Assembly (NCBI GenBank): GCA_009841635.1
Contig: VXLJ01000001.1
Location: 89,400 to 142,113 of the forward strand
Direction: 5' to 3'
From: Gammaproteobacteria bacterium
Lineage (GTDB): Bacteria; Pseudomonadota; Gammaproteobacteria; Pseudomonadales; Azotimanducaceae
Length of the DNA: 52,714 nt
Positions within the stretch are counted from its first letter, which is position 1. The number at the start of each line of letters is the position of its first letter. Positions 4,853 to 30,002 of this stretch are shown here, one piece after another. A model generated the notes under the pieces. The model ran no database searches. It was given only the letters and a program-made list of their open reading frames with translations, and was not told the DNA's origin. Position numbers and translations under genes: made by a program.

Positions 4853-6508
4853 ATGAATGGATTCGACCTTATTGCCCAATGTTTAAAAGCCGAAGGTGTC
4901 GAGTGGATGGCATGCTTTCCTGCGAACGCGCTGATTGAAGCAGCCGCGCGGGTAGGAATCCGACCCATAGTGTTCCGCCAAGAACGCGGCGGCATCAATG
5001 CTGCCGATGGCTACGCACGAACTCTCGCAGGCAAGCAAGTTGGCGTATTCGCTTCGCAATCGGGACCGGGGGTTGAAAACTCCTTCGGCGGTATCGCGCA
5101 AGCTTGGGGCGAGGCTGTGCCAGTATTGTTTCTGCCAGGCGGCGCTGGCACCGGCAGCTATGACATCAAACCGAACTTCTCTGCGGTCAAAAACTACCAA
5201 CACGTATCAAAACTCGCCATCTCAATAGACCAGATTGGTCAGACGTCGCGAGAAATGCGGCGCGCTTTCCATGCACTCAAACATGGTCGTCCAGGTCCCG
5301 TCGTTGTCGAAATGCACGGCGACGTCCTAGGAAGAGATGTGCCAGAAAGCTCTCAAACCTATCGCCCGACCAAAGTGATGCGTTCCGCACCAAGCGCTGG
5401 TGACGTCAAGGACGCTGTCGCTGCACTACTCAAGGCAAAGAATCCAGTGCTATGGGCAGGTCAAGGTGTCCTGTATGCGGATGCAACGAATGAACTGCGC
5501 TCGCTTGCTGAGTTAGCGCAAATTCCTGTGATTACAACCATGGAAGGCAAAAGTGCATTCCCAGATGATCATCCACTCGCACTTGGTTCCGCCAATCGCA
5601 CCGCACCGAAAGCCGTCTACAAGTGGCTCGGCGAATCAGACGTACTTTTCGCAATCGGGTCCGGGCTCACCCGCACCTCATTTGGCTTGGACATACCAAA
5701 CAACAAGATGCTAATCCAAGCCACAGTATCTGCAGAAGACATTAATAAAGACTATGACGTCGACCTCGGTTTGGTGGGCGATGCGAAATTGACGCTCCAA
5801 GCTATGGTCGAGGAAGTAAAAGCCCAAGTTGGCGACAACGGCCGCGAAACAAACACGACGTTGCAAAGTGATATTGCCACAACCAAAGGCGACTGGCTAA
5901 AGGAGTGGGACCCATTGCTTACGTCCGATGAGATTCCTGTGAACCCATATCGAGTGATTAATGAAATCAATAACGTCATTGATCACGAAAACTCGGTGGT
6001 AACCCACGATGCTGGAAATCCGCGCGATCAAATCATGCCGTTTTACAAAGCGACACTGCCTCGCGGCTACATCGGTTGGGGTAAAACCACCCATCTTGGC
6101 TATGGTATACCGCTCGCCATCGGCGCAAAACTCGCAGCGCCTGATAAGTTCTGCATGAACTTCATGGGTGATTTGGCATTTGGCCATACTGGTACTGAAA
6201 TCGAAACCGCAGTTCGGGCGGAAGTGCCGATCACAACCGTTGTCATCAATAACGGTACGATGGGTGGTTACGATTCAAAAATGCCTGTGGCGATGACGAA
6301 GTACGGCGCTGGTAACCAAACTGGCGATTACGCAGATCTTGGTAAGGCGATGGGTGCTACAGGCATAAAGGTTGAAGATCCGAACGAGCTCGTGCCTGCG
6401 TTAGAAACTGCGCACCGAGAAAACGCTGAAGGTCGCGTAACCGTGATTGAAGTCATCACCCGGCAAGATACCCGGTTTTCGCAGTATGGCGATTACCTCG
6501 CCACCTGA
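4853..6508 (+). CDS. Thiamine-diphosphate-dependent enzyme, acetolactate synthase / benzoylformate decarboxylase superfamily
   Basis: Three-domain ThDP enzyme of 551 residues. The catalytic glutamate that activates the cofactor is E44 in RQERGGINAADGYAR. The middle domain holds the linker and nucleotide-like fold. The C-terminal domain has the ThDP/Mg motif beginning GDLAFG and ending about 28 residues later in INNGTMGG. Such enzymes cleave or form C-C bonds next to a carbonyl (decarboxylases, carboligases); sequence alone does not tell which. The gene starts 22 bases after the PdxA-family gene and is probably cotranscribed with it. A dehydrogenase-decarboxylase followed by a ThDP lyase suggests stepwise breakdown of a hydroxy acid, which is inference. 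Its last 16 bases overlap the convergent end of lnt. Confidence 0.85.
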   Translation: MNGFDLIAQCLKAEGVEWMACFPANALIEAAARVGIRPIVFRQERGGINAADGYARTLAGKQVGVFASQSGPGVENSFGGIAQAWGEAVPVLFLPGGAGTGSYDIKPNFSAVKNYQHVSKLAISIDQIGQTSREMRRAFHALKHGRPGPVVVEMHGDVLGRDVPESSQTYRPTKVMRSAPSAGDVKDAVAALLKAKNPVLWAGQGVLYADATNELRSLAELAQIPVITTMEGKSAFPDDHPLALGSANRTAPKAVYKWLGESDVLFAIGSGLTRTSFGLDIPNNKMLIQATVSAEDINKDYDVDLGLVGDAKLTLQAMVEEVKAQVGDNGRETNTTLQSDIATTKGDWLKEWDPLLTSDEIPVNPYRVINEINNVIDHENSVVTHDAGNPRDQIMPFYKATLPRGYIGWGKTTHLGYGIPLAIGAKLAAPDKFCMNFMGDLAFGHTGTEIETAVRAEVPITTVVINNGTMGGYDSKMPVAMTKYGAGNQTGDYADLGKAMGATGIKVEDPNELVPALETAHRENAEGRVTVIEVITRQDTRFSQYGDYLAT

Positions 6509-7986
6509 CGCTTTTCAAACCCACGTAGAACCACTGCTGTGAGGAATCCAGCTGCTAACAACATGGCTAGCAGCAAGCTACCATAGCGCGTGAAGGGGGT
6601 TGCGCCACGCATTGTGTGGACAGTCCCCTCAAGCGTTGTGCGTTGGAACTGTGGTGCTTTCGCAACAAGGCGTCCGTCTGGTCCAACGATGCCGGAAATA
6701 CCGCTATTGGCTGCGCGAATGACATAGCGACCATGCTCGCGTGCTCGCATGCGTGCCATTTCAAAATTCTGGTGCGGCGCTAATGAATCGCCGAACCATG
6801 CATCTTCACTCACCACCACAATGGCATCTGCATCGCTTTGCCGAACCGCATCACGTGTGTCAAACTCGAAGCTAGCTTCATAGCAAATGGCAGCCGCTAG
6901 TCTCAGACCTGCGACATTGAGCGAGCGTGAGTTTGAATCGCTCACGTCCAAGCTCGAATGAGGCACCTCGACGAAACCGCTTAAGAGTGGGCGTAAAAAG
7001 CTTTCGAGTGGCACGCGTTCGCCAAATGGCACAAGCCGAAGCTTGCGGTAATTAGCGCTGTCTTCGCCATAGACTAAGAGGGAGTTGTAACGCTGTTCAT
7101 TAGCGGCTTCTAAATAACCTCCCGCGATGTAACGATGCCCCGTCGACGCGCGAACTAGCGCAAACGCCTCCTCTAGATGGGGACGCGTGGTCACAAATGC
7201 CGCCTCGCTCCAAAGGACAAGATCCTTCGCTTTCATGCGTTGGGACAGTTGCTCATAGATTCGAAAAGTTGCCCCAGAAGTAGCCATCGACCACTTTTCG
7301 TTTAGCGAAATGTTTATCTGGGCGATCCCTATCTGACGTGCTTCACCTCGCTCTGTAAAGCTAAGCAAGCCAGCCAAGCTACAGAGTACCAAAACCCCAC
7401 CTGCACACGCTAGTAAATGCCAGCCGGATACCAGTGCGGCTGCCACAAACGCCACGACGAAACTCACTCCCTTGACCCCGAAGATTGGTGCGAATCCGTC
7501 CAACCAAGTACCAACTGTCACGTAACCCGCATCGAGAATCGGGAAGCCCGTGAACAACCAGGTTCTGATTAGTTCATAAAGAACCCAAACAACTGCGAAA
7601 TAGAAACAGCCAGCTAAACGACTGATATGCATTGAGTTGTCAAGGCGCCGATCTTTCGGCCATTGCATCGCCAAACCGACCAAGCCGGTTATTAATGCCA
7701 ACAAACCTACAAACAACATCACAAAGAATGTCGCAAGCGGTGGTGCAACATCGCCATACTGCTGCAGCGCGACATACACCCACGAAACGCCAACGCCGAA
7801 TTTGCCGACCCCGAACAACCAGGCGTAGCAAAAGCCTTTACTTAGACGATCGGTTTGATTGAGTAGGTAGTAGAGGCCAGCCAACGCGACAAACGTCGCT
7901 GGGTAAAAGTCAAACGGCGCAAACCCAAGCGGGTAAATCGCGCCACAAGCTAAGGGAAGAAGAAACGCGAATTTGGAACGCGCTAT
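6493..7986 (-). CDS. lnt: Apolipoprotein N-acyltransferase, apparent AUA start
   Basis: Adds the third acyl chain to the N-terminal cysteine of lipoproteins in the inner membrane. The N-terminal half is a set of membrane helices. The C-terminal half is a nitrilase domain with WSEAAF (catalytic Glu), YRKLRLVPFGERVP (Lys region) and CYEASF (catalytic Cys). The first ATG/GTG/TTG in frame is a TTG at 7882-7884. The frame upstream of it still reads like the Lnt N-terminus (FLLPLACGAIYPLGFAPFDF), so translation must begin earlier. The only plausible site is ATA at 7984-7986, overlapping the corC stop (ATAG), with AAGAGG ending eight bases upstream. That gives 497 residues against 512 in E. coli. 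A sequence error is less likely, since ATA to ATG would also destroy the corC stop. Confidence 0.9.
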   Translation of the reverse strand: MARSKFAFLLPLACGAIYPLGFAPFDFYPATFVALAGLYYLLNQTDRLSKGFCYAWLFGVGKFGVGVSWVYVALQQYGDVAPPLATFFVMLFVGLLALITGLVGLAMQWPKDRRLDNSMHISRLAGCFYFAVVWVLYELIRTWLFTGFPILDAGYVTVGTWLDGFAPIFGVKGVSFVVAFVAAALVSGWHLLACAGGVLVLCSLAGLLSFTERGEARQIGIAQINISLNEKWSMATSGATFRIYEQLSQRMKAKDLVLWSEAAFVTTRPHLEEAFALVRASTGHRYIAGGYLEAANEQRYNSLLVYGEDSANYRKLRLVPFGERVPLESFLRPLLSGFVEVPHSSLDVSDSNSRSLNVAGLRLAAAICYEASFEFDTRDAVRQSDADAIVVVSEDAWFGDSLAPHQNFEMARMRAREHGRYVIRAANSGISGIVGPDGRLVAKAPQFQRTTLEGTVHTMRGATPFTRYGSLLLAMLLAAGFLTAVVLRGFEKRQVAR

Positions 7987-8864
7987 TGGCCGTTCCTCTT
8001 CACACGAATCTTCACAATGCGACGTTCCGTCGCCTCTAGGACTTCAAATCGAATATCGCCATCTTTGGTTTTTTCGCCAACCACAGGCACATGACCCAGT
8101 TTTGTCGATAAGTAACCGCCGATGGTATTGTTTTGGTCGTTGGATAAAGAGGAATCAAAGTGCTCGTTGAATTCATCAATGGAAAGGTCCGCACTCACAT
8201 CCGTATGACCGTTGTCGTGAGGACTCGCACCACCGTCTTCCTCTTGGATCAAATCCTCGACGGCTTCACCCATATCGTGCTCGTCATGAATTTCACCAAA
8301 GAACTGTTCGAAGATATCTTCCATCGTGACCAAGCCGACAATCTGCGAATACTCATTCTCGACGACGGCTAGATGCACACGATCGCGTTGAAATTCCCGC
8401 AGCAACGAAACGATGCTTTGATCCTGCGGCACGACTTTGGCATCGCGACGTAACTCAGCGACATCGAAGAAACTCCCATTGTCGCCGCTGATCAACGTAG
8501 CCAGTAGATCTTTCGCATGCAACAACCCTAATACGGAATCGACATTGTGACCTTGAATTGGGTACCGCGAGTGCCCGGTTTCCTTGATGATCCCAACCAC
8601 CTTTTCCAGGCTCATGTCCCGTGACACCGTGACGACACGAGACCGTGGCACCATGATGTCATGGGCATTCTTCGTTGAAGATTCGAGCAAGGTCGTGATG
8701 AACGGTACTGCTTCTTCATCGAAGTCCTGATCAAACGTAAAAACGCTATCCATGAGAATTTTGAATTTCTCTTCGAAGGACAAGTCCACGCCTTTGCGGA
8801 CAGCGCCTCGAACAAGATGGCGCCACCCTTTACCGCCGCGTGGTCTTTCTGCAGCGTCACTCAT
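7983..8864 (-). CDS. corC: CorC/YbeX-type CBS-domain protein
   Basis: A soluble 293-residue protein with two CBS domains (first around MVPRSRVVTVSRDMSLEKVV, second ending in VGLVTMEDIFEQFFGEIHDE) and a C-terminal CorC/HlyC domain. Relatives are linked to magnesium/cobalt efflux and, as YbeX, to ribosome metabolism next to YbeY. The start chosen is ATG at 8862-8864, giving MSDAAERPRGG and a length like E. coli YbeX (292). A TTG 18 bases further upstream is also open. The start overlaps the end of ybeY by eight bases, and the stop overlaps the proposed lnt start, so the block phoH-ybeY-corC-lnt is one tightly coupled operon. Confidence 0.93.
   Translation of the reverse strand: MSDAAERPRGGKGWRHLVRGAVRKGVDLSFEEKFKILMDSVFTFDQDFDEEAVPFITTLLESSTKNAHDIMVPRSRVVTVSRDMSLEKVVGIIKETGHSRYPIQGHNVDSVLGLLHAKDLLATLISGDNGSFFDVAELRRDAKVVPQDQSIVSLLREFQRDRVHLAVVENEYSQIVGLVTMEDIFEQFFGEIHDEHDMGEAVEDLIQEEDGGASPHDNGHTDVSADLSIDEFNEHFDSSLSNDQNNTIGGYLSTKLGHVPVVGEKTKDGDIRFEVLEATERRIVKIRVKRNGQ
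7995..8000 (-). promoter_or_regulatory. Shine-Dalgarno sequence that supports the AUA start of lnt
   Basis: On the minus strand AAGAGG lies inside the last codons of corC, with eight bases between it and the ATA at 7984-7986. This is ideal spacing and the main support for that unusual start. The corC stop and the lnt start share bases, so translational coupling is expected. Confidence 0.5.
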
Positions 8865-18234: not shown

Positions 18235-19410
18235 TTAATCGATCCCAACGACGCCAGCTGTCACTAATCTCGACAGCTCATCGTCATCTAATCCTAATTC
18301 TTCGTTAAGCACGTTCGCGGTATGCTCGCCGAGCAACGGCGCAGCTTCAATGGCAACTTCGCTGGCCGACATCTTTGCAGGCCATCCCATTAACTTGATT
18401 TGGCCATGAATTGGATGGTCTACTTCGTGCACGAAGCCTCTTTCAACTAAATGCTCGTTTAGATACAGTTCCTGCGTCGATAAAACCGCGCTAGCAGGCA
18501 CCCCAGCCTCGGCTAACTCCTTCATTGCTTCGTATTTGGTACGTTGGCTCGTCCAGTTCGAAATCTCTCCTCGCAATCGATCTCGATCTTCCGCACCGGG
18601 CCAGCCTTGCGGCTCGGCATCTTGGCGCGCAGAGTGAATAACCCCAAGTACAGCTTGCCACATTTTGGGTGTAACTGCCATGACATAGACGTAATCATTC
18701 GGTCCACCGCCTTTACACGGATATAGGGTCATGTTTGGCCCGCCACCATTTCCCGATCTGCCGGCTGCACGCTCGCCAAAGCGACCACCAGAAGTGGCCG
18801 TGCGCAGGTAGTAGGTCATCGCTTCCTGCATGGATAGTTCGATGTACTGCCCTGCACCAGTGCGCATCTTTTGAATGTAAGCAGCGGATAGCGCCAACGC
18901 CATTTGCACGCCTGTCCCTGCATCCCCTGTGGTCGGGCCAGGACGCATAGGCGGACCGTCAGCTTCGCCAGTGATAGAAAAAGCGCCTGCAGCCGCTTGC
19001 GCCACCATGTCATAACACTTGTAACTCGACCAAGGACCCTCAACGCCAAATCCTTTCAACCGTGCGTAAATGATGTCTTGCTTATGTTTACGCAAGTCGT
19101 CGTAGGTCAAGCGAAGTTTTTCTATAACGCCGGGACCGTAGTTTTCGACAAAAATATCGAACTTTGGCAAGAGTTGCATAAACAGGTCGCGGCCAGCCTC
19201 TGACTTTAAGTCAATCGCGACGCTTCGTTTGTTTGAGTTCCAAACAACGAAATACTCAGCGTTACCAGTCGGGCCCCGACCTGGGTCCCCGCCACCAGGC
19301 GCTTCAATTTTCACCACATCTGCGCCCATCCAAGCCAATGCTTGCGTACAGGAAGTCCCCGCTTCGTATTGCGTCATATCCAAGATGCGCATCCCGTCTA
19401 ACGCAGGCAT
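18235..19410 (-). CDS. CaiB/BaiF family (class III) CoA-transferase
   Basis: Moves CoA between carboxylic acids (formyl-CoA, carnitine, bile-acid type substrates) in the cytoplasm. 391 residues. The N-terminal LDMTQYEAGTSCTQALAWMG and DVVKIEAPGGGDPGR blocks and KRSVAIDLKSEAGRDLF are characteristic. The catalytic aspartate is D163 in TTGDAGTGVQM. The typical VENYGPGVIEKLRL segment is present. It faces the TauD-type gene head-to-head with about 155 bases between, which must hold both promoters. Substrate unknown. Confidence 0.92.
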   Translation of the reverse strand: MPALDGMRILDMTQYEAGTSCTQALAWMGADVVKIEAPGGGDPGRGPTGNAEYFVVWNSNKRSVAIDLKSEAGRDLFMQLLPKFDIFVENYGPGVIEKLRLTYDDLRKHKQDIIYARLKGFGVEGPWSSYKCYDMVAQAAAGAFSITGEADGPPMRPGPTTGDAGTGVQMALALSAAYIQKMRTGAGQYIELSMQEAMTYYLRTATSGGRFGERAAGRSGNGGGPNMTLYPCKGGGPNDYVYVMAVTPKMWQAVLGVIHSARQDAEPQGWPGAEDRDRLRGEISNWTSQRTKYEAMKELAEAGVPASAVLSTQELYLNEHLVERGFVHEVDHPIHGQIKLMGWPAKMSASEVAIEAAPLLGEHTANVLNEELGLDDDELSRLVTAGVVGID

Positions 19411-21670: not shown

Positions 21671-24600
21671 CTACCAAGTATCGACGTAAGGTCTCTTTTT
21701 TGCCGTCCTTGGTGGCGTAGGCGGAAGACTCTTCATCCCCTGCACGATAAAGGCGCGTGTGTCCGCTGGATCGATGACGTAACGCGCGCCCGAATTGACT
21801 GCACGGGCGGACTCATAGCCTTGCGCTACACGGGTGTCGTATGCGATTTTGCGTTCCTCAGGATCTTCGATTGCCATGAGCTCACGTCGCGCGGAGAGCT
21901 TTACCGCCCCGTCAATATTCATGCCTGCAAACTCCGCGGTCGGCCATGCAACATTCAAAAACGGTACAGATGATGCGCCACCGATCATAGCTTGCACACC
22001 TAACCCGTAAGCCTTTCGAACCATGACACCAAACATAGGTGTCGTGCAGTTTGCACCGATATTGAAAAGCCGCACTGCATGGCGCACCAATGCAGTTCGC
22101 TCGTGGTCGGGACCGACCATGATGCCAGGACAATCCATAAACACAACGACAGGTATATCGAATGCGTCACAGAGTTGAAAGAACCGCGCCCCTTTGTCGG
22201 CACCTGGACTATCCACCGCGCCAGCTAAATGAGCAGGATTGTTTGCGACGACACCCATCGGCTGCCCTTCGACGCGAATGAGCAACGTATGCACACCAAT
22301 TCCAAAGTCTTTACGAAGTTCAAGCATCGAGCCCTTATCGGCAAGCGTCTCGACAATATCTCGCATGACGTATGCTCGAACACGATCTTCTGGGATGATG
22401 TGGCGCATCTTGCGCTGGTCTTGTGCTTCCCAATCGGCAACTGGTCCTTGAAAATACGACAGATACTGCTTCACCGTTTTCATGGCAGACGCGTCATCTT
22501 CGACGACCACATCGACGTTACCAGTAGGCGCTTGGAAATGCATGGATCCGAGCTCGTCTGCATCAAACTCACCGATACCACTTGCAGCCGCAACATCTGG
22601 CCCAGTAAAACCAATGGTCGAGTCTTTTGTAGCGATGATGACATCGCAACACGAAAGCAATGCCGCATTGCCGGCGTAACAGTGTCCTAAGTTGACGCCC
22701 ACGAGTGGAACCAAGCCGGAGAGTTTGGCGAAATCAGTAAACACACTCGCATCCATACCAACGCCGCCCACGCCACCAAATGGCTGCCCTTCACCTTCTG
22801 AAAACAGCACTATAGGTACACGCCAGTCTTGCGCTATTTCGTGGATTTGCTCTTGTCGATAGTGCCCGTGAGTGTAAGAAGCAACGGGATAGTTGCTATG
22901 GACGATCGCCACGCGACTTTGGTTTTCACCTACGAGATGTGTATTGACACTACCAAAACCAATGATTGTTCCACCTGCTGCAGATCCCGATGCTGCCGGT
23001 CCAAATTCCTTGAATGTATCTGCATCTACTAAGTCAGCAATGTTTTCACGTGGCGTGCGTCGATTCTGCGCACGCAGATTTGCGACTGCTTCCTCATGTG
23101 CTGGATCGAGTCGTTGTTCGATCAGTTCGTTGAGTTCATCTAGGTCGTTTCGTTGTTGGTCAAGATCAATGCCTTGGTCAAGAGCGATTCCGTCAGCGTC
23201 ACTATCGCTTTCATGAATAAAAACAATAGGAAACCCTTCCCGTACGACATCACCTTCAGCCATCGACACCGCGCACACGACGCCGTTCCGTTCAGCCCGA
23301 ATGTCATGCTGGAGCTTCATTGCTTCCACCACTGCAACAACCTGTCCTACGACGACGTTTTCACCAATCCCAACGTCGATCCCAACAATCGTGCCTTGCA
23401 TTGGCGCGACCAATCCGATCGATCCGGGTGGTCCTATTGCATGGGCCGCGTCGTCTTCAGATGCAACGGCGATTTCATATCCCTCCGGCACGACGAACTG
23501 GCGATGCGCCAATGTAGTGGCAAGTTCCTGCATGCGCTCGTCGACGAAGCGCGTGTGCACCGCGCCCGCGGCGAAATCCTCATGCCGCAAGATGCTCTGC
23601 AAGAAGCCGATGTTCGTGTCCACGCCCTCGACGCGAAACTCGCTCAACGCCCGATGCGTGCGCTTGATCGCCGCCGCCAACCCGCCCGTCGACGCATAGC
23701 CGATCACCTTCGCCAGCAGCGAGTCGAAATGCAAGCTCGTTTCATAGCCCGCATAGCCGAAGCCGTCCGTGCGCATGCCTGGTCCGCTCGGCGCTTCGTA
23801 CGCCGCCAACGTCCCGCTCGCCGGCCGGATCGCGCCATCCTCGCCCACCGCTTCCATGCACACCCGCGCTTGGATCGCATAGCCGCGCGGTTCAATGGGC
23901 TCCGCCAAGCCCAACTCCGCCAACGTCGCGCCAGCCGCAATGCGCAACTGCGCTTGCACGATGTCCACCCCCGTCACTTCTTCGGTGACCGTGTGCTCGA
24001 CCTGCAAGCGCGCGTTCGTCTCGATGAAGGCGAACGGCTGCCCACCGTCCGCGCCCGCCGCGTCCACTAGAAATTCGAACGTGCCGGCGTTCGTGTAGCC
24101 GATGTGCCGCGCCATCCGCACCGCCGCGTCAATGATGCCGTCCCGCACCCCGGCGTCCAACGCCGGCGCCGGCGCCACCTCCACAATCTTCTGGAAGAAC
24201 CGCTGCACGCTGCATTCGCGCTCCCCCAAATGCGTGATCGCCCCCGTCGCATCGCCAAGAATCTGCACTTCCACATGCCGCGCGCGCTGCATGAATTCTT
24301 CTACGTACAGCTCGCCATTGCCGAACGCCGCCAATGCTTCCGCTTGGCAACGCGCATATGTGGCGGCCACCTCGGCCGCGTCCGCCACCATCCGCGAACC
24401 CCGGCCGCCACCGCCGCCGAGCGCCTTGATCATCATCGCGCGCCCCTCGCCCAACTCCGCGAAAAACGCTTGCGCTTCCGCCACGTTGACCGCGCGGTCG
24501 ATGCCGCGCAGCACCGGAATCCCAGCCGTGACCGCCGACGCGCGTGCTTGCGCCTTGTCGCCGCACAGGCTCAAAATCTCCGCCCGCGGCCCCACGAACG

Positions 24601-24892
24601 TCAGGCCCGCGGCGGCGCACTGCGCCGCGAACCGCGGGTTCTCCGACAGGAACCCATAGCCTGGATGCACCGCGTCGCACCCCGCCGCTTGCGCAACCTG
24701 CACCAGTTGCTCGATGTCCAGATAGGCGGCCGCGCCCACGCCATCCAACGCCACCACCTCGTCCGCCTTGCCGGTGTGGAGCGAGCCGCGGTCGTCCGCC
24801 GGCGCAACCCCCACCGTCGCAACCCCCAACTCCGCCGCCGCGCGCATGATCCGTATCGCAATCTCGCCTCGATTGGCCACCAGGAGCTTCAT
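21671..24892 (-). CDS. Single-chain acyl-CoA carboxylase (biotin carboxylase - biotinyl domain - carboxyltransferase)
   Basis: 1073 residues holding all three activities, as in the single-chain long-chain acyl-CoA carboxylases (LCC). Residues 1-470 are biotin carboxylase: ATP-grasp loop GGGGGRGSRM, HVEVQILGD, KIVEVAPAP and ETNARLQVEH. About 491-560 is a biotinyl domain with the acceptor lysine K526 in VEAMKLQHD. The remainder is a carboxyltransferase of the propionyl-CoA carboxylase beta type (HSNYPVASYTHGHY, CDVIIATKDSTIGFTGP, VFMDCPGIMVGPDHERT), ending KKRPYVDTW. It would carboxylate an acyl-CoA at the alpha carbon using ATP and bicarbonate; the substrate is unknown. The first 1415 bases appear identical to those of the upstream paralogue and are GC-richer than the rest. 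It lies 31 bases downstream of that paralogue in one operon. Confidence 0.92.
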   Translation of the reverse strand: MKLLVANRGEIAIRIMRAAAELGVATVGVAPADDRGSLHTGKADEVVALDGVGAAAYLDIEQLVQVAQAAGCDAVHPGYGFLSENPRFAAQCAAAGLTFVGPRAEILSLCGDKAQARASAVTAGIPVLRGIDRAVNVAEAQAFFAELGEGRAMMIKALGGGGGRGSRMVADAAEVAATYARCQAEALAAFGNGELYVEEFMQRARHVEVQILGDATGAITHLGERECSVQRFFQKIVEVAPAPALDAGVRDGIIDAAVRMARHIGYTNAGTFEFLVDAAGADGGQPFAFIETNARLQVEHTVTEEVTGVDIVQAQLRIAAGATLAELGLAEPIEPRGYAIQARVCMEAVGEDGAIRPASGTLAAYEAPSGPGMRTDGFGYAGYETSLHFDSLLAKVIGYASTGGLAAAIKRTHRALSEFRVEGVDTNIGFLQSILRHEDFAAGAVHTRFVDERMQELATTLAHRQFVVPEGYEIAVASEDDAAHAIGPPGSIGLVAPMQGTIVGIDVGIGENVVVGQVVAVVEAMKLQHDIRAERNGVVCAVSMAEGDVVREGFPIVFIHESDSDADGIALDQGIDLDQQRNDLDELNELIEQRLDPAHEEAVANLRAQNRRTPRENIADLVDADTFKEFGPAASGSAAGGTIIGFGSVNTHLVGENQSRVAIVHSNYPVASYTHGHYRQEQIHEIAQDWRVPIVLFSEGEGQPFGGVGGVGMDASVFTDFAKLSGLVPLVGVNLGHCYAGNAALLSCCDVIIATKDSTIGFTGPDVAAASGIGEFDADELGSMHFQAPTGNVDVVVEDDASAMKTVKQYLSYFQGPVADWEAQDQRKMRHIIPEDRVRAYVMRDIVETLADKGSMLELRKDFGIGVHTLLIRVEGQPMGVVANNPAHLAGAVDSPGADKGARFFQLCDAFDIPVVVFMDCPGIMVGPDHERTALVRHAVRLFNIGANCTTPMFGVMVRKAYGLGVQAMIGGASSVPFLNVAWPTAEFAGMNIDGAVKLSARRELMAIEDPEERKIAYDTRVAQGYESARAVNSGARYVIDPADTRAFIVQGMKSLPPTPPRTAKKRPYVDTW
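23478..24892 (-). repeat. Direct repeat, copy A: biotin-carboxylase module (1415 bp)
   Basis: Matches 26980-28394 with an offset of 3502 bases. Every stretch I compared is identical, and translations in several frames on both strands are the same. The match ends exactly at the ATG on one side (next bases differ, A against G) and in the third base of codon 472 on the other. The block is clearly GC-richer than the neighbours: for example 47 of 60 bases at 24121-24180 against 34 of 60 at 22201-22260. Confidence 0.9.
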
Positions 24893-24923
24893 ATTTCTGA
24901 ATCCGTTTTACTTCGTGCTGTCT

Positions 24924-27900
24924 CTACCATGTATCTACGTTCGGTCGTTTCTTCTCCTTACGCGGGCCAACTTTCGGCACGCTGCGCAAGCCTTGTGCGA
25001 GCCATGCCCTTGTGTCCGACGGATCTACAACGTCATCGACACCATAGTTGGTACCACCAGAGTTAGCGGCCTGGACGCGATCGATGTGCGCGTTTATGAG
25101 ACGCTCTGTAATTTGCGCCCGCTCGGATTCGTCATCAATACCTTCGAGCTCTTCACCATAGGTCAAGTTGACGCGTCCTTCAACCGTCATTTCTGCGAAC
25201 TCAGCCGTTGGCCACGCGATCGTGAAAAACGGTTCTAATGAACTACCGCCGCACATCGCGCGAACACCCATGCCGTAGGCTTTTCGGACCACGACGCCAA
25301 ACAAAGGTGTCGTGAGATTTGCGCCCGTAACGAACAAACGACCTACGTGACGAACCAACCCAGTTCGTTCTTGTTCTGGGCCTGCCGCGATGCCAGGACA
25401 ATCCATCAGCGATATCACTGGAATATCGAACGAATCGCACAGCTGTAGAAAACGTGCCGCTTTGTCCGATGCGTCGCTGTCGACAGCTCCTGATAGGTGA
25501 TGAGGGTTGTTGGCAATGAGTCCCGCAGGATGGCCTTCAACCCGAACGAAGCCGGTGATGATCCCCACGCCAAAATCCTTGCGAATCTCTAGAAATGAAC
25601 CTTCATCCGCAACCGTCAAAATGATTTCGCGCATGTCATAGAGCTCGTCTCGCGATTCCGGCACCACACTTCGCAAGCGCCGTTGATCGCGTGCCGACCA
25701 ACGATCAATCGAGCCTTGAAAGTAGGACAGATACTGCTTCGTCGTGGTAATCGCAGCTTCGTCGTCTTTTACAAGAATGTCGACAACACCATTGGGCACC
25801 TGGAAAGACATTGGTCCCACTTCTTCCGGTGTGTAAATGCCTAAACCACCTCCTTCGATCATGGCAGGACCACCCAAGCCAATCGTCGAATTCTCTGCCG
25901 CGATGATGACATCGCACGAAGCCAACATAACGGTATTACCTGCGAAGCATCGGCCTGAGTTAACGCCTACGAGTGGCACTAAGCCGCTCAAGTCGCATAG
26001 TTTTGTGAACGTGTAAGAGTCCGTTGGCACACCACCACCACCTCGACCTGCAACGTCCACAGCAGCGTGTCGTGATCGTGGTGCTGGTTGCCCTGGTTTG
26101 CGCAAGCCAGACTCAACGGCAATATCCTGAGCTTCAGCGCGCTCGCCACCACTGATACCTGGACGACCGCCGCCGCCTTCAGCAAATAGCACCAATGGCA
26201 GACGATAGCGTCCGGCTAATTCGTAGATTCGATCTTGCTTGTAGTGGCCTCGACCGCCTTGAGTGCCAGCAACCACCATATAGTCGTAGTGCACGACAAC
26301 GGCACGTGATCTTTCGTCGTCAAACAAATCCCCATTGATATTGCCGATACCCATCACGAGCCCGTCGGCTTGAGTAGTCTCACGAAGCCATTGCTGTTTT
26401 TGCCAACTAGCTGCTGTTACCAGCGGTCCATATTCGCGAAACGTGCCGTCCATCAGATGCGAGATGTTTTCAGCTGGGCTGCGCTGTTCCTTCGCGTGGC
26501 GACGACTGATTTTTTCTGCACGAAAATCGTCAGAAATAAATGAGCGACGCTCGTCTACCAGTGCAAGGTCGTCGCGACGTAGATCTGGATCATGATCAAC
26601 CCGATCTCGGGCTATTTCGGCGGTGTTTTCAGATGGCGCAAGCTCGACGATAGGGTCGCCTTGTTGAACTTGATCGCCAACTGACAAGAACACCGTCTCG
26701 ACGAATCCCGATGTAACTGACCGTACGACATGTTCAAGCTCGAGATACTTGATTGACGCAATCGCTTGGCCATTGGCAACTTCCTCCCCTTCACTGACAG
26801 AAACACTCTTCAAATAGCCAGGAACTAACGCTGTCACCTGAATAGGTCCGGAATCCTCCGCGTCGCCAGCTGCATTCTCTGCTGCCTTAACCTGCGTGTC
26901 GTGCGTGAATAAAGCAAGTGGATCGCTGGAGTCATCAACTCTCGCACCGGCATACCCGTCGGCCTGCTGTTCCGCGTCGTATCCCTCCGGCACGACGAAC
27001 TGGCGATGCGCCAATGTAGTGGCAAGTTCCTGCATGCGCTCGTCGACGAAGCGCGTGTGCACCGCGCCCGCGGCGAAATCCTCATGCCGCAAGATGCTCT
27101 GCAAGAAGCCGATGTTCGTGTCCACGCCCTCGACGCGAAACTCGCTCAACGCCCGATGCGTGCGCTTGATCGCCGCCGCCAACCCGCCCGTCGACGCATA
27201 GCCGATCACCTTCGCCAGCAGCGAGTCGAAATGCAAGCTCGTTTCATAGCCCGCATAGCCGAAGCCGTCCGTGCGCATGCCTGGTCCGCTCGGCGCTTCG
27301 TACGCCGCCAACGTCCCGCTCGCCGGCCGGATCGCGCCATCCTCGCCCACCGCTTCCATGCACACCCGCGCTTGGATCGCATAGCCGCGCGGTTCAATGG
27401 GCTCCGCCAAGCCCAACTCCGCCAACGTCGCGCCAGCCGCAATGCGCAACTGCGCTTGCACGATGTCCACCCCCGTCACTTCTTCGGTGACCGTGTGCTC
27501 GACCTGCAAGCGCGCGTTCGTCTCGATGAAGGCGAACGGCTGCCCACCGTCCGCGCCCGCCGCGTCCACTAGAAATTCGAACGTGCCGGCGTTCGTGTAG
27601 CCGATGTGCCGCGCCATCCGCACCGCCGCGTCAATGATGCCGTCCCGCACCCCGGCGTCCAACGCCGGCGCCGGCGCCACCTCCACAATCTTCTGGAAGA
27701 ACCGCTGCACGCTGCATTCGCGCTCCCCCAAATGCGTGATCGCCCCCGTCGCATCGCCAAGAATCTGCACTTCCACATGCCGCGCGCGCTGCATGAATTC
27801 TTCTACGTACAGCTCGCCATTGCCGAACGCCGCCAATGCTTCCGCTTGGCAACGCGCATATGTGGCGGCCACCTCGGCCGCGTCCGCCACCATCCGCGAA

Positions 27901-28394
27901 CCCCGGCCGCCACCGCCGCCGAGCGCCTTGATCATCATCGCGCGCCCCTCGCCCAACTCCGCGAAAAACGCTTGCGCTTCCGCCACGTTGACCGCGCGGT
28001 CGATGCCGCGCAGCACCGGAATCCCAGCCGTGACCGCCGACGCGCGTGCTTGCGCCTTGTCGCCGCACAGGCTCAAAATCTCCGCCCGCGGCCCCACGAA
28101 CGTCAGGCCCGCGGCGGCGCACTGCGCCGCGAACCGCGGGTTCTCCGACAGGAACCCATAGCCTGGATGCACCGCGTCGCACCCCGCCGCTTGCGCAACC
28201 TGCACCAGTTGCTCGATGTCCAGATAGGCGGCCGCGCCCACGCCATCCAACGCCACCACCTCGTCCGCCTTGCCGGTGTGGAGCGAGCCGCGGTCGTCCG
28301 CCGGCGCAACCCCCACCGTCGCAACCCCCAACTCCGCCGCCGCGCGCATGATCCGTATCGCAATCTCGCCTCGATTGGCCACCAGGAGCTTCAT
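24924..28394 (-). CDS. Single-chain acyl-CoA carboxylase paralogue without the biotin-accepting lysine
   Basis: 1156 residues in the same order as its neighbour: biotin carboxylase (1-471, identical), linker, biotinyl-like domain (about 517-585) and carboxyltransferase. The biotinyl fold is recognisable (ALVPGYLKSVSVSEGEEV, then VTSGFVETVFLSVGD). Where the partner has EAMKLQH it reads KYLELEH, placing E552 at the biotin lysine, so it should not be biotinylated. The carboxyltransferase is divergent but complete, with an extra glycine-rich and basic loop of about 35 residues after FAEGGGGRPG, and ends KKRPNVDTW. It is the first gene of the pair. It may work as a subunit using biotin carried by the other protein (both share one biotin carboxylase), or act as a decarboxylase or inactive partner; this is inference. 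Confidence 0.88.
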   Translation of the reverse strand: MKLLVANRGEIAIRIMRAAAELGVATVGVAPADDRGSLHTGKADEVVALDGVGAAAYLDIEQLVQVAQAAGCDAVHPGYGFLSENPRFAAQCAAAGLTFVGPRAEILSLCGDKAQARASAVTAGIPVLRGIDRAVNVAEAQAFFAELGEGRAMMIKALGGGGGRGSRMVADAAEVAATYARCQAEALAAFGNGELYVEEFMQRARHVEVQILGDATGAITHLGERECSVQRFFQKIVEVAPAPALDAGVRDGIIDAAVRMARHIGYTNAGTFEFLVDAAGADGGQPFAFIETNARLQVEHTVTEEVTGVDIVQAQLRIAAGATLAELGLAEPIEPRGYAIQARVCMEAVGEDGAIRPASGTLAAYEAPSGPGMRTDGFGYAGYETSLHFDSLLAKVIGYASTGGLAAAIKRTHRALSEFRVEGVDTNIGFLQSILRHEDFAAGAVHTRFVDERMQELATTLAHRQFVVPEGYDAEQQADGYAGARVDDSSDPLALFTHDTQVKAAENAAGDAEDSGPIQVTALVPGYLKSVSVSEGEEVANGQAIASIKYLELEHVVRSVTSGFVETVFLSVGDQVQQGDPIVELAPSENTAEIARDRVDHDPDLRRDDLALVDERRSFISDDFRAEKISRRHAKEQRSPAENISHLMDGTFREYGPLVTAASWQKQQWLRETTQADGLVMGIGNINGDLFDDERSRAVVVHYDYMVVAGTQGGRGHYKQDRIYELAGRYRLPLVLFAEGGGGRPGISGGERAEAQDIAVESGLRKPGQPAPRSRHAAVDVAGRGGGGVPTDSYTFTKLCDLSGLVPLVGVNSGRCFAGNTVMLASCDVIIAAENSTIGLGGPAMIEGGGLGIYTPEEVGPMSFQVPNGVVDILVKDDEAAITTTKQYLSYFQGSIDRWSARDQRRLRSVVPESRDELYDMREIILTVADEGSFLEIRKDFGVGIITGFVRVEGHPAGLIANNPHHLSGAVDSDASDKAARFLQLCDSFDIPVISLMDCPGIAAGPEQERTGLVRHVGRLFVTGANLTTPLFGVVVRKAYGMGVRAMCGGSSLEPFFTIAWPTAEFAEMTVEGRVNLTYGEELEGIDDESERAQITERLINAHIDRVQAANSGGTNYGVDDVVDPSDTRAWLAQGLRSVPKVGPRKEKKRPNVDTW
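26980..28394 (-). repeat. Direct repeat, copy B: biotin-carboxylase module (1415 bp)
   Basis: Partner of 23478-24892. Here too the block ends at the ATG start codon and gives way at codon 472 to a linker of different sequence and lower GC. The tandem orientation would allow recombination that removes 3502 bases and leaves one carboxylase. Confidence 0.9.
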
Positions 28395-28529: not shown

Positions 28530-30002
28530 GTGAACGGTGTGAGAAAAAGCACACTTCGCTTTGATCGACGGAATTCAAACCTCTCAGTTCGATTGCTGTG
28601 CAGAATAAAGGAAGTTTTTACGTTAAAGCTATTCGTGTCACGAACGCACTATCTCTTGCTAGATGATCGCATCATCGAATCAGTCGAAAACGCACGCCTC
28701 AATTTAGGAAAGGCGACTAAACATGAAGCTAATCCACTATTTTCAGAAGATCAACCTTGGGAAATGCGCTTCGACAATCTCTATGCCAATGTCATTTACG
28801 ACCATGAAGAAGAACTATTCAAGTGTTGGTATAGCCCGTTCATTGTCGACTACTCTGCTAAGGACATGGGTCTCGACGAACGAAGAAGCACACCTTATCG
28901 CGCGCCATCTAATCGAGAGATGGGACTCTGCTATGCCACATCTCAAGATGGACTAACGTGGGAGAAACCTGCCCTAAATCTTGTCGAGTACGCTGGCAGT
29001 TCGACCAACAACATTCTTTGGCGCGGTTCTGGTAATACCAGAGCGAGCAAGGCGGGTCCCCATGGTGCAGGCATCATGAAAGATCTCAGTGAACCTAACC
29101 CTCGACGACGCTACAAGGCGATACTCAAATCAGGGGTCCTCTCTGTCGCTTTCTCGCCCGATGGCATTCATTGGGATGCCGCTCGGCAATGCCCTGAAGC
29201 TGATAGCGCCGGTGATACTCACAACAACGCATTTTGGGCTCCTACTCTCGGCAAATATGTCGGCATAACACGGCAATGGAGTGAGGACTTCCAACGACAG
29301 ATCGCTCGCACATCGAGCGAGGACTTTTTAAATTGGCAAAAGGTCGAGATAGTCCTTGAGGGAACGACTCACCGACACCAGACCTACGCCATGCCGGCTT
29401 TCTATTACGGGGGTATCTACCTCGGTTTATTGTCAGTGCATGATCAAGACACTGACAGAGTTCAATTAGAGCTAACTTGGAGTCCGGATGCGGTCACTTG
29501 GAAACGAGTCTGTCCTGGCACGCCGCTAATTCCCAATGGTGTGGCTGAAGGTGACTACGACTGGGGTTGTATATATGCAGCTGCTGTGCCGATCATCCGC
29601 GAAAATGAAATCTTGATCTATTACGGCGGAAGCGATGGGTTGCACACAAGCTGGCGTACCGGCTATTTTTGCCTAGCAACGTTAGGCGCGGACAGATTTG
29701 TTGGTTATGAATCAATCGATAAGCTAGGTGTAGCAACGATAACGACGGCAGAGATGTTTGATGCAACATCTACATTAGCTCTCACAGCTGACATCTACAA
29801 AGGTGGTAATTTGGTGGCTGAAATCATCGACGAAAAACAAAATGTGCTTTATCGAAGCCAACTATTCAGCCAGTCGGTCACCAATGAAAAAGTGAATTGG
29901 TCCAATGTAGCTGCAGCTTCGAATACGTATGAAGAGACGTATAGGTTGCGATTTAAGTTCAAGCAAGGCTGTATCTATACGATTAAAAAAGGTGCAAGTT
30001 AA
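28530..30002 (+). CDS. Predicted five-bladed beta-propeller protein (glycoside-hydrolase 43/32-like), function unknown
   Basis: 490 residues. Repeated blade-like segments carry aspartate/tryptophan turns: ATSQDGLTWEKP, FSPDGIHWD, RTSSEDFLNWQK and TWSPDAVTWKR. These are typical of the propeller fold shared by GH43/GH32-type enzymes and related proteins of unknown activity. A beta-rich C-terminal domain of about 110 residues follows. There is no clear signal peptide. The start is uncertain: GTG 28530 gives a basic N-terminal extension, while the domain seems to begin near LKLFVSRTHYLLLDDR, where no ATG exists. It is divergent from the carboxylase genes, with 135 bases between. No sugar-uptake genes are nearby, so I do not assign a substrate. 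Confidence 0.7.
   Translation: MNGVRKSTLRFDRRNSNLSVRLLCRIKEVFTLKLFVSRTHYLLLDDRIIESVENARLNLGKATKHEANPLFSEDQPWEMRFDNLYANVIYDHEEELFKCWYSPFIVDYSAKDMGLDERRSTPYRAPSNREMGLCYATSQDGLTWEKPALNLVEYAGSSTNNILWRGSGNTRASKAGPHGAGIMKDLSEPNPRRRYKAILKSGVLSVAFSPDGIHWDAARQCPEADSAGDTHNNAFWAPTLGKYVGITRQWSEDFQRQIARTSSEDFLNWQKVEIVLEGTTHRHQTYAMPAFYYGGIYLGLLSVHDQDTDRVQLELTWSPDAVTWKRVCPGTPLIPNGVAEGDYDWGCIYAAAVPIIRENEILIYYGGSDGLHTSWRTGYFCLATLGADRFVGYESIDKLGVATITTAEMFDATSTLALTADIYKGGNLVAEIIDEKQNVLYRSQLFSQSVTNEKVNWSNVAAASNTYEETYRLRFKFKQGCIYTIKKGAS

What the first reader, a model, noticed from the sequence alone, without database searches (positions are those of the whole stretch)
23478..28394. Identical biotin-carboxylase module in two otherwise divergent carboxylase genes
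Two tandem single-chain carboxylases share a 1415-bp block (23478-24892 and 26980-28394) that appears identical base for base, while the linker, biotinyl and carboxyltransferase parts have clearly diverged. The block starts exactly at both ATG codons and ends at the domain border. It is far GC-richer than the rest of either gene (47/60 bases at 24121-24180 against 34/60 at 22201-22260). This could mean recent import of a foreign biotin carboxylase that replaced both native modules, or ongoing gene conversion that keeps one half identical while the other specialises. An assembly artefact should be excluded, because the repeat is longer than short reads.
Basis: partly seen in the sequence, partly recalled or inferred. 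Interest (0 to 1): 0.82.

Follow-up and report, generated by a model that had tools for sequence, protein, structure and literature searches.

The report
Carboxylase halves kept identical by recombination
Two neighbouring bacterial enzyme genes share a front half that is identical letter for letter, and related species show the same thing with their own different letters, so the two halves seem to be kept alike by DNA copying between them, which may also make them rich in G and C.

Summary
It is not a recent import, and hardly an assembly error. The tandem pair (A, 1156 aa; B, 1073 aa) was readable with both modules in 12 of 206 genomes of the family (13 pairs). In 7 of 13 the biotin-carboxylase (BC) modules are 99.9-100% identical within the genome, yet ours is only ~81% identical in protein to those of three congeners. 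Trees of the rest separate A from B; the BC tree joins A and B of one genome in 9 of 13 pairs. This is domain-limited concerted evolution by gene conversion; G216 shows a single tract. In 7 of 7 homogenised pairs BC has much higher third-position GC than the rest of the same genes; 21 unpaired homologues do not, though G216, G004 and a solo B in G204 fit poorly. GC-biased conversion is the likeliest cause, not proven. Unexpectedly, 17 of 17 A proteins lack the biotin-accepting lysine and 19 of 19 B keep it, and some non-homogenised B modules have lost active-site residues: A and B may form one mixed enzyme.

The parts
24924..28394 (-). gene A: single-chain acyl-CoA carboxylase-like protein, 1156 aa, without the biotinyl lysine
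21671..24892 (-). gene B: single-chain acyl-CoA carboxylase-like protein, 1073 aa, with the biotinyl lysine; 31 bp lie between the stop of A and the ATG of B
26980..28394 (-). BC module copy in A (1415 bp, identical to the copy in B; GC3 83.9%)
23478..24892 (-). BC module copy in B (1415 bp)
26898..26960 (-). linker of A (DGYAGARVDDSSDPLALFTHD), similar in other single-chain carboxylases of the family (G004_C83, G023_C31) and missing from B
26730..26750 (-). biotinyl motif of A, KYLELEH: Glu where the motif lysine of 4rcn aligns
23306..23326 (-). biotinyl motif of B, EAMKLQH: Lys present
24987..26474 (-). carboxyltransferase domain of A (Pfam Carboxyl_trans, residues 641-1136)
21740..23074 (-). 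carboxyltransferase domain of B (Pfam Carboxyl_trans, residues 607-1051)

Best explanation
A and B are old tandem paralogues of a single-chain acyl-CoA carboxylase. Shown by sequence comparison: their carboxyltransferase and biotinyl parts have diverged as two separate lineages, while in many of the genomes the BC modules have been overwritten by one another. Inferred: the overwriting is RecA-type recombination between two direct repeats 3.5 kb apart (non-reciprocal gene conversion). It stops where homology stops, at the ATG (upstream sequences are unrelated) and at the end of the BC domain (linker and biotinyl domain have diverged), which gives the sharp borders. Inferred with moderate confidence (about 0.6): repair during these conversions favours G and C, so the module moves to a GC equilibrium near 0.8 while the rest of each gene stays near 0.5. 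Inferred (about 0.5): A supplies BC and carboxyltransferase without biotin, B supplies the biotin arm, and the two work as a mixed complex. Identity of the modules is not itself required, because some pairs have lost it and B's module then decays. The confidence given below is for the core claim, gene conversion of the BC module.
For: Within-genome BC differences in 470 codons: 0, 0, 2, 1 (G000, G015, G016, G017) and 0, 0, 1 (G212, G215, G203), while the rest of A and B is 48-55% identical in protein in these seven. Between G000 and the three congeners BC is 76.5-77.6% identical in DNA with 43-46% of four-fold sites different; orthologous rests differ at 68-75% of four-fold sites, near saturation. 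REST tree: A and B separate with 100/99 on either side; BC tree: A and B of one genome together in 9 of 13 pairs, G205 unresolved, 3 not. G216: 48 differences in 1362 bp but one exact run of 610 bp, against at most 413 in 2000 codon shuffles. GC3 excess of BC over rest, logit scale: 0.88 to 1.69 in 7 of 7 homogenised pairs, -0.45 to 0.14 in 21 unpaired homologues (with G004's B moved out of that group). A separate GC equilibrium for BC fits better than a shared one, p = 0.00012, or 0.0026 with a free rate. Biotin lysine absent in 17 of 17 A, present in 19 of 19 B.
Against: On GC bias: G216 is 94.9% identical between copies but has almost no excess (0.05), while G209 has 0.92 at 91.9% identity; G204 has a partial B with no A in 4.2 kb upstream and still an excess of 1.15, measured against only 181 codons; G004, of the window's own genus, has a B next to an A cut by the contig edge and no excess (-0.02), its A module being unseen. 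L084, a pair on a contig labelled Chloroflexi, has a deficit in B (-0.65). The homogenised pairs fall into two groups of related species, so independent GC rises are few and rank tests overstate n. Parsimony was too sparse and separate fits did not exclude GC* 0.5 for BC. No unrelated homogenised gene served as control: EF-Tu was found once in each of 6 of 8 genomes. On the mixed enzyme: nothing was measured, and B occurs without A in G058 and G156.
Confidence: 0.85

Rival explanations
1. A GC-rich BC module came once from a high-GC donor into an ancestor, was copied into both genes, and was kept alike by conversion without GC bias; the high GC is a remnant of the donor.
For: The module is GC-rich in both homogenised groups, and relatives with GC-rich genes carry similar modules. 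Two cases without full present-day identity keep an excess (G209, G204).
Against: Four-fold sites outside the module are near saturation between G000 and its congeners, so a donor signal should have faded. A joint model with one shared equilibrium fits worse (p = 0.00012 or 0.0026) and needs a root GC of 0.08-0.18 for the rest. In the GC-rich genus the module exceeds its own background (GC3 92.9-96.6 against 84.4-87.7).
Confidence: 0.22
2. Assembly artefact: the two modules differ in nature but short-read assembly collapsed them into one sequence.
For: The G017 contig has a SPAdes-style name, and several related contigs end at or inside the module (G211, G213, G206, G197), as where an assembler cannot pass a repeat. 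The repeat is longer than short reads.
Against: Collapse can hide only small differences; clearly different copies are assembled apart in G205, G057 and G095. G216 on a 4.36-Mb contig shows an intermediate, mosaic state.
Confidence: 0.04
3. Purifying selection alone keeps the two BC modules identical because both subunits must match.
For: BC is an enzymatic module and is conserved.
Against: Synonymous sites are identical too (0 of 272 four-fold sites differ in G000), which selection on the protein cannot do. Pairs with modules 52-78% identical exist, and B's module lost motif residues in G205 and G095a.
Confidence: 0.01
4. The high GC3 reflects selection on codons or mRNA of the BC half, not biased repair.
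For: One search shows a different equilibrium, not its cause. G204 has the excess without a partner.
Against: The BC half of 21 unpaired homologues, two of them complete solo B genes (G058, G156), shows no excess.
Confidence: 0.15

Closest known systems
[quoted passage not shown] PDB 4rcn)
   Same: Best solved relative of both proteins, matched over nearly the whole length (E 2.6e-265 for A in three stretches, 3.1e-239 for B); same order BC, biotinyl, carboxyltransferase.
   Different: 4rcn keeps EAMKM. Here there are two tandem genes; A lacks the lysine, B lacks the linker and has a diverged first half of the carboxyltransferase.
Gene conversion between rRNA operons of E. coli (PMC8022953, passages read)
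   Same: Homogenisation of copies within one genome, described there as RecA-dependent in bacteria.
   Different: Here only the first 41-44% of two protein genes is homogenised, with borders at the ATG and at a domain end, while the rest diverges.
GC-biased gene conversion in bacteria (PMC4450053, passages read; disputed in PMC8153448, abstract and passages read)
   Same: Recombining sequence is GC-richer than other sequence.
   Different: PMC4450053 compares genes with and without evidence of recombination; here the contrast lies within single genes, with a step at the edge of the converting stretch.

Membership tests
Concerted evolution by gene conversion | paralogous stretches more alike within a genome than orthologous stretches between species | tested here: met
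   99.9-100% within, 76.5-90.0% DNA identity between the four species of the window's genus
Concerted evolution by gene conversion | conflict between trees of the converted and unconverted parts of the same genes | tested here: met
Concerted evolution by gene conversion | mosaic intermediate pairs with exact tracts | tested here: met
   G216 610-bp run, reached by 0 of 2000 codon shuffles; G209 129 bp, p 0.001; G205 none (p 0.34); G057 p 0.05
Concerted evolution by gene conversion | dependence on RecA and conversion seen in culture | not testable with these tools
   no experiment possible
GC-biased gene conversion | GC excess confined to converting sequence and absent from non-converting homologues | tested here: inconclusive
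   present in 7 of 7 homogenised pairs, absent in 21 unpaired; but absent in G216 (94.9% alike), present in G209 (91.9%) and in the solo partial B of G204; G004 unclear
GC-biased gene conversion | GC equilibrium different from the rest of the gene | tested here: met
   (p 0.00012 / 0.0026); separate fits were underpowered
GC-biased gene conversion | excess of AT-to-GC among observed conversion events | tested here: inconclusive
   only 2-3 ancestral AT sites could be polarised in BC
Single-chain acyl-CoA carboxylase (LCC type) | BC, biotinyl and carboxyltransferase domains in one chain | tested here: met
   both proteins
Single-chain acyl-CoA carboxylase (LCC type) | biotin-accepting lysine in an E-A-M-K motif | tested here: not met
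   not met by A (0 of 17), met by B (19 of 19). So B passes and A does not as a self-sufficient member
Single-chain acyl-CoA carboxylase (LCC type) | homo-oligomer active on long-chain acyl-CoA | not testable with these tools
   no assay

The most novel reading that the evidence does not exclude
A natural test of GC-biased gene conversion in bacteria inside single genes: where the BC halves of two tandem carboxylase genes keep converting each other, third positions rise to a new GC equilibrium with a step at the edge of homology. The two genes encode a mixed carboxylase in which one chain has given up its biotin and depends on its partner, and conversion from the selected copy keeps the partner's otherwise dispensable BC module from decaying.
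Probability: 0.4. Interest if true: 0.85.

Novelty: new variant of a known kind. Interest (0 to 1): 0.7.

Why it matters
Whether gene conversion in bacteria is GC-biased is disputed: PMC4450053 argues yes from differences between genes, PMC8153448 states that it has not been observed. Here the converting and non-converting parts lie in the same gene, under the same expression and in the same genome, so the question becomes directly testable. The pair also points to a carboxylase built from two unequal copies of a single-chain enzyme, one of which lacks the biotin lysine in every genome read.

Tried and rejected
Recent import: rejected. A third copy of the module in the genome: only two weak matches of 93-94 bp on other contigs. 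Plasmid origin: best plasmid match to A is 46.4% identical. Selection on the protein alone: rejected on synonymous identity. Parsimony polarisation and separate likelihood fits were too weak; only the joint fit separates the models. EF-Tu as a homogenised control failed, because it was found once per genome or not at all. Pop-out between the direct repeats as the origin of solo B genes: no shared flanks found, undecided. A first reading that the two carboxyltransferase halves degenerated in strictly complementary fashion was softened: B's first half is clearly diverged (47.9 against 65.5% to seven intact relatives), A's second half only slightly (63.5 against 70.7%), and solo B genes share B's divergence, so a changed substrate is as possible. 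Order and phylum samples, drawn from larger groups, gave no further A gene at their thresholds. Structure prediction was not used.

Rows left out of the counts: one search left out three of the 22 single loci (L009, L018, L027: rest too short or broken), of which L009 came back as G004_C145 from the longer stretch. Not and computed later: G211 A 1.30, G213 A 1.17, G206 B 1.10 (contigs end at the pair, so homogenisation cannot be read), G204 partial B 1.15, L084 B -0.65. The rank-test p values include it.

Failed scripts: (failed at a print, finished as 44; printed the GC counts, then failed; its other part was dropped).

Full report
Observation. The two blocks are identical over 1415 bp with no mismatch, and the exact repeat is neither longer nor shorter. 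On the minus strand the upstream gene A (24924-28394) and the downstream gene B (21671-24892) are 31 bp apart. Pfam finds three BC domains, a biotinyl domain and a carboxyltransferase domain in both. The closest solved protein to both is the single-chain long-chain acyl-CoA carboxylase 4rcn. The block has 67.6% GC; other 1415-bp stretches of the window, sampled every 50 bp, average 51.1% and reach 55.1% at most.

Not an import, not confined to this assembly. Among 18 genomes of the genus, four (G000, G015, G016, G017) hold the complete tandem pair, with 3502, 3503, 3499 and 3502 bp between the starts of the copies; in each the two modules differ by 0 to 3 of 1413 bases. Ours is only 80.9-81.5% identical to theirs in protein and 76.5-77.6% in DNA. 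A fifth, G004, has B with the end of an A gene directly upstream at the contig edge.

Wider survey. In the family (206 genomes), the search with the rest of A gave 16 places at 57% identity or more over nearly the whole query, in 15 genomes; the other matches are 43-50% over most of it or 56-66% over residues 314-685 only. In 13 of the 16 a complete or nearly complete B lies next to A; in G197 a 3.3-kb contig holds the rest of A and the start of B; in G211 and G213 the contig ends about 100 bp after A. The order is A-B in 11 of the 13 and B-A in G057 and in one of the two pairs of G095. B stands without A on the stretches read in G058 and G156, and a partial B does so in G204; in G206 the contig begins inside B's module.

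Degree of homogenisation, 13 pairs. BC DNA identity is 100, 100, 99.9, 99.9 (G000, G015, G016, G017), 100, 100, 99.9 (G212, G215, G203), 94.9 (G216), 91.9 (G209), 78.2 (G205), 60.4 (G057), 55.8 and 51.9 (G095). The rest of A and B is 45-55% identical in protein in all 13. G216, on a 4.36-Mb contig, is a mosaic: 48 differences in the first 1362 bp but a 610-bp exact run, against at most 413 in 2000 codon shuffles. G209 is weakly patchy (129 bp, p 0.001); G205 is not (p 0.34).

Trees (36 rows). For the rest of the genes, A and B fall on two sides with 100/99 each; two intact single-chain relatives sit at the base of the A side. For BC, A and B of the same genome group together in G000, G015, G016, G017, G212, G215, G203, G209 and G216; A and B of G057 and of both G095 pairs do not; G205 is unresolved. 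The two G216 modules are sister to the A module of G095a (99/98), and the unconverted B modules sit on long branches elsewhere, which suggests that conversion ran from A to B. Long branches make this tentative.

GC. GC3 of BC against the rest is 84.0 against 49.3, 77.4 against 53.3, 76.9 against 49.8 and 78.2 against 54.4 in the window's genus, and 92.9-96.6 against 84.4-87.7 in G212, G215 and G203. At 20-codon resolution the step lies at the border of the identical block. On the logit scale the excess is 0.88 to 1.69 in 7 of 7 homogenised pairs, -0.45 to 0.14 in 21 unpaired homologues, and -0.28 to 0.92 in the six other pairs (G209 0.92, G205 0.22, G216 0.05). Further rows: 1.30, 1.17 and 1.10 for G211, G213 and G206, whose partner module is cut off; 1.15 for the partial solo B of G204; -0.65 for L084 B. 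G004's B has -0.02, its A module being unseen. A joint two-state model of four-fold sites in the four congeners prefers a separate GC equilibrium for BC (0.80) over the rest (0.53): p 0.00012 with equal rates, 0.0026 with a free rate. Separate fits were too weak and parsimony too sparse. The rows are related, so the rank-test p (6e-7) should not be taken at face value. I read this as GC-biased conversion with past conversion explaining G209 and G204, but G216, G204 and G004 keep it from being settled.

What the pair may do. In the alignment to 4rcn the lysine of EAMKM is matched by Glu in A and by Lys in B. All A proteins read lack it: 16 and G197, with Glu, Asp or Gly there. All B proteins read have EAMKL: 18 and G204. 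Mean identity to seven intact single-chain relatives is, for A and B respectively, 34 and 66% in the biotinyl domain, 65.5 and 47.9% in the first half of the carboxyltransferase, and 63.5 and 70.7% in the second. B's BC has lost residues of the ExNxRxQVEH motif in G205, G095a and L084; in G057 and G095b B it is mostly kept; A's BC keeps it in 15 of 15 A proteins that cover it. That these residues are catalytic is recalled. In fungal acetyl-CoA carboxylase the carboxyltransferase active site is made by two chains in a head-to-tail dimer (PMC4833862, passages read), so a mixed A:B enzyme is plausible. This is inference.

Why identity persists (inference). If A's BC is the one under selection and B's can decay, conversion plus selection on A keeps B's copy intact as a by-product, and pairs that fall below the similarity needed for recombination escape and decay. 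The borders need no special signal: homology ends at the ATG and at the linker. Flanking genes are mostly not shared between the groups of species; a CoA-transferase-like ORF in three genomes is the main exception.

Literature. Gene conversion with acyl-CoA carboxylase and tandem: 0 papers. Two of biotin carboxylase, gene conversion, homogenization: 10 of 707 listed, none on carboxylases by title. Non-biotinylated carboxylase paralogues: 12 of 102 listed, none describing such a protein in its title or the start of its abstract. No earlier report was seen in these listings of an open-access library. PMC6491548 (passages read) describes LCC activity on C2-C16 acyl-CoA, citing Tran et al. 2015, which I did not read.

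Noticed in passing
window 26730-26750; relatives L035-L037, L067-L079, L193: The A paralogue lacks the biotinyl lysine in every genome read (17 of 17), although the domain around it remains.
   Followed up: yes
L067 (G205), L078 (G095a), L084: These B genes have lost residues of the ExNxRxQVEH motif of their BC module.
   Followed up: partly
L081 (G204): A partial B gene with no A in the 4.2 kb upstream still has a GC-rich BC module.
   Followed up: partly
L036 about 5956-8433 (minus strand): In G015, G016 and G017 the gene upstream of A encodes a protein of about 825 aa that looks like the F420 cofactor enzyme FbiC (name from recall); no match within 5 kb of the pair in our window.
   Followed up: no
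window 18235-19410; L069; L078: A CoA-transferase family III gene (Pfam for the window's copy) has similar ORFs within about 2.5 kb of the pair in G215 and G095a.
   Followed up: no
L084: A contig titled Chloroflexi carries an A-B pair close to the gammaproteobacterial ones: transfer or a mis-binned contig.
   Followed up: no
window 28530-30002: A 490-aa open frame next to A has no Pfam match at 1e-5.
   Followed up: no
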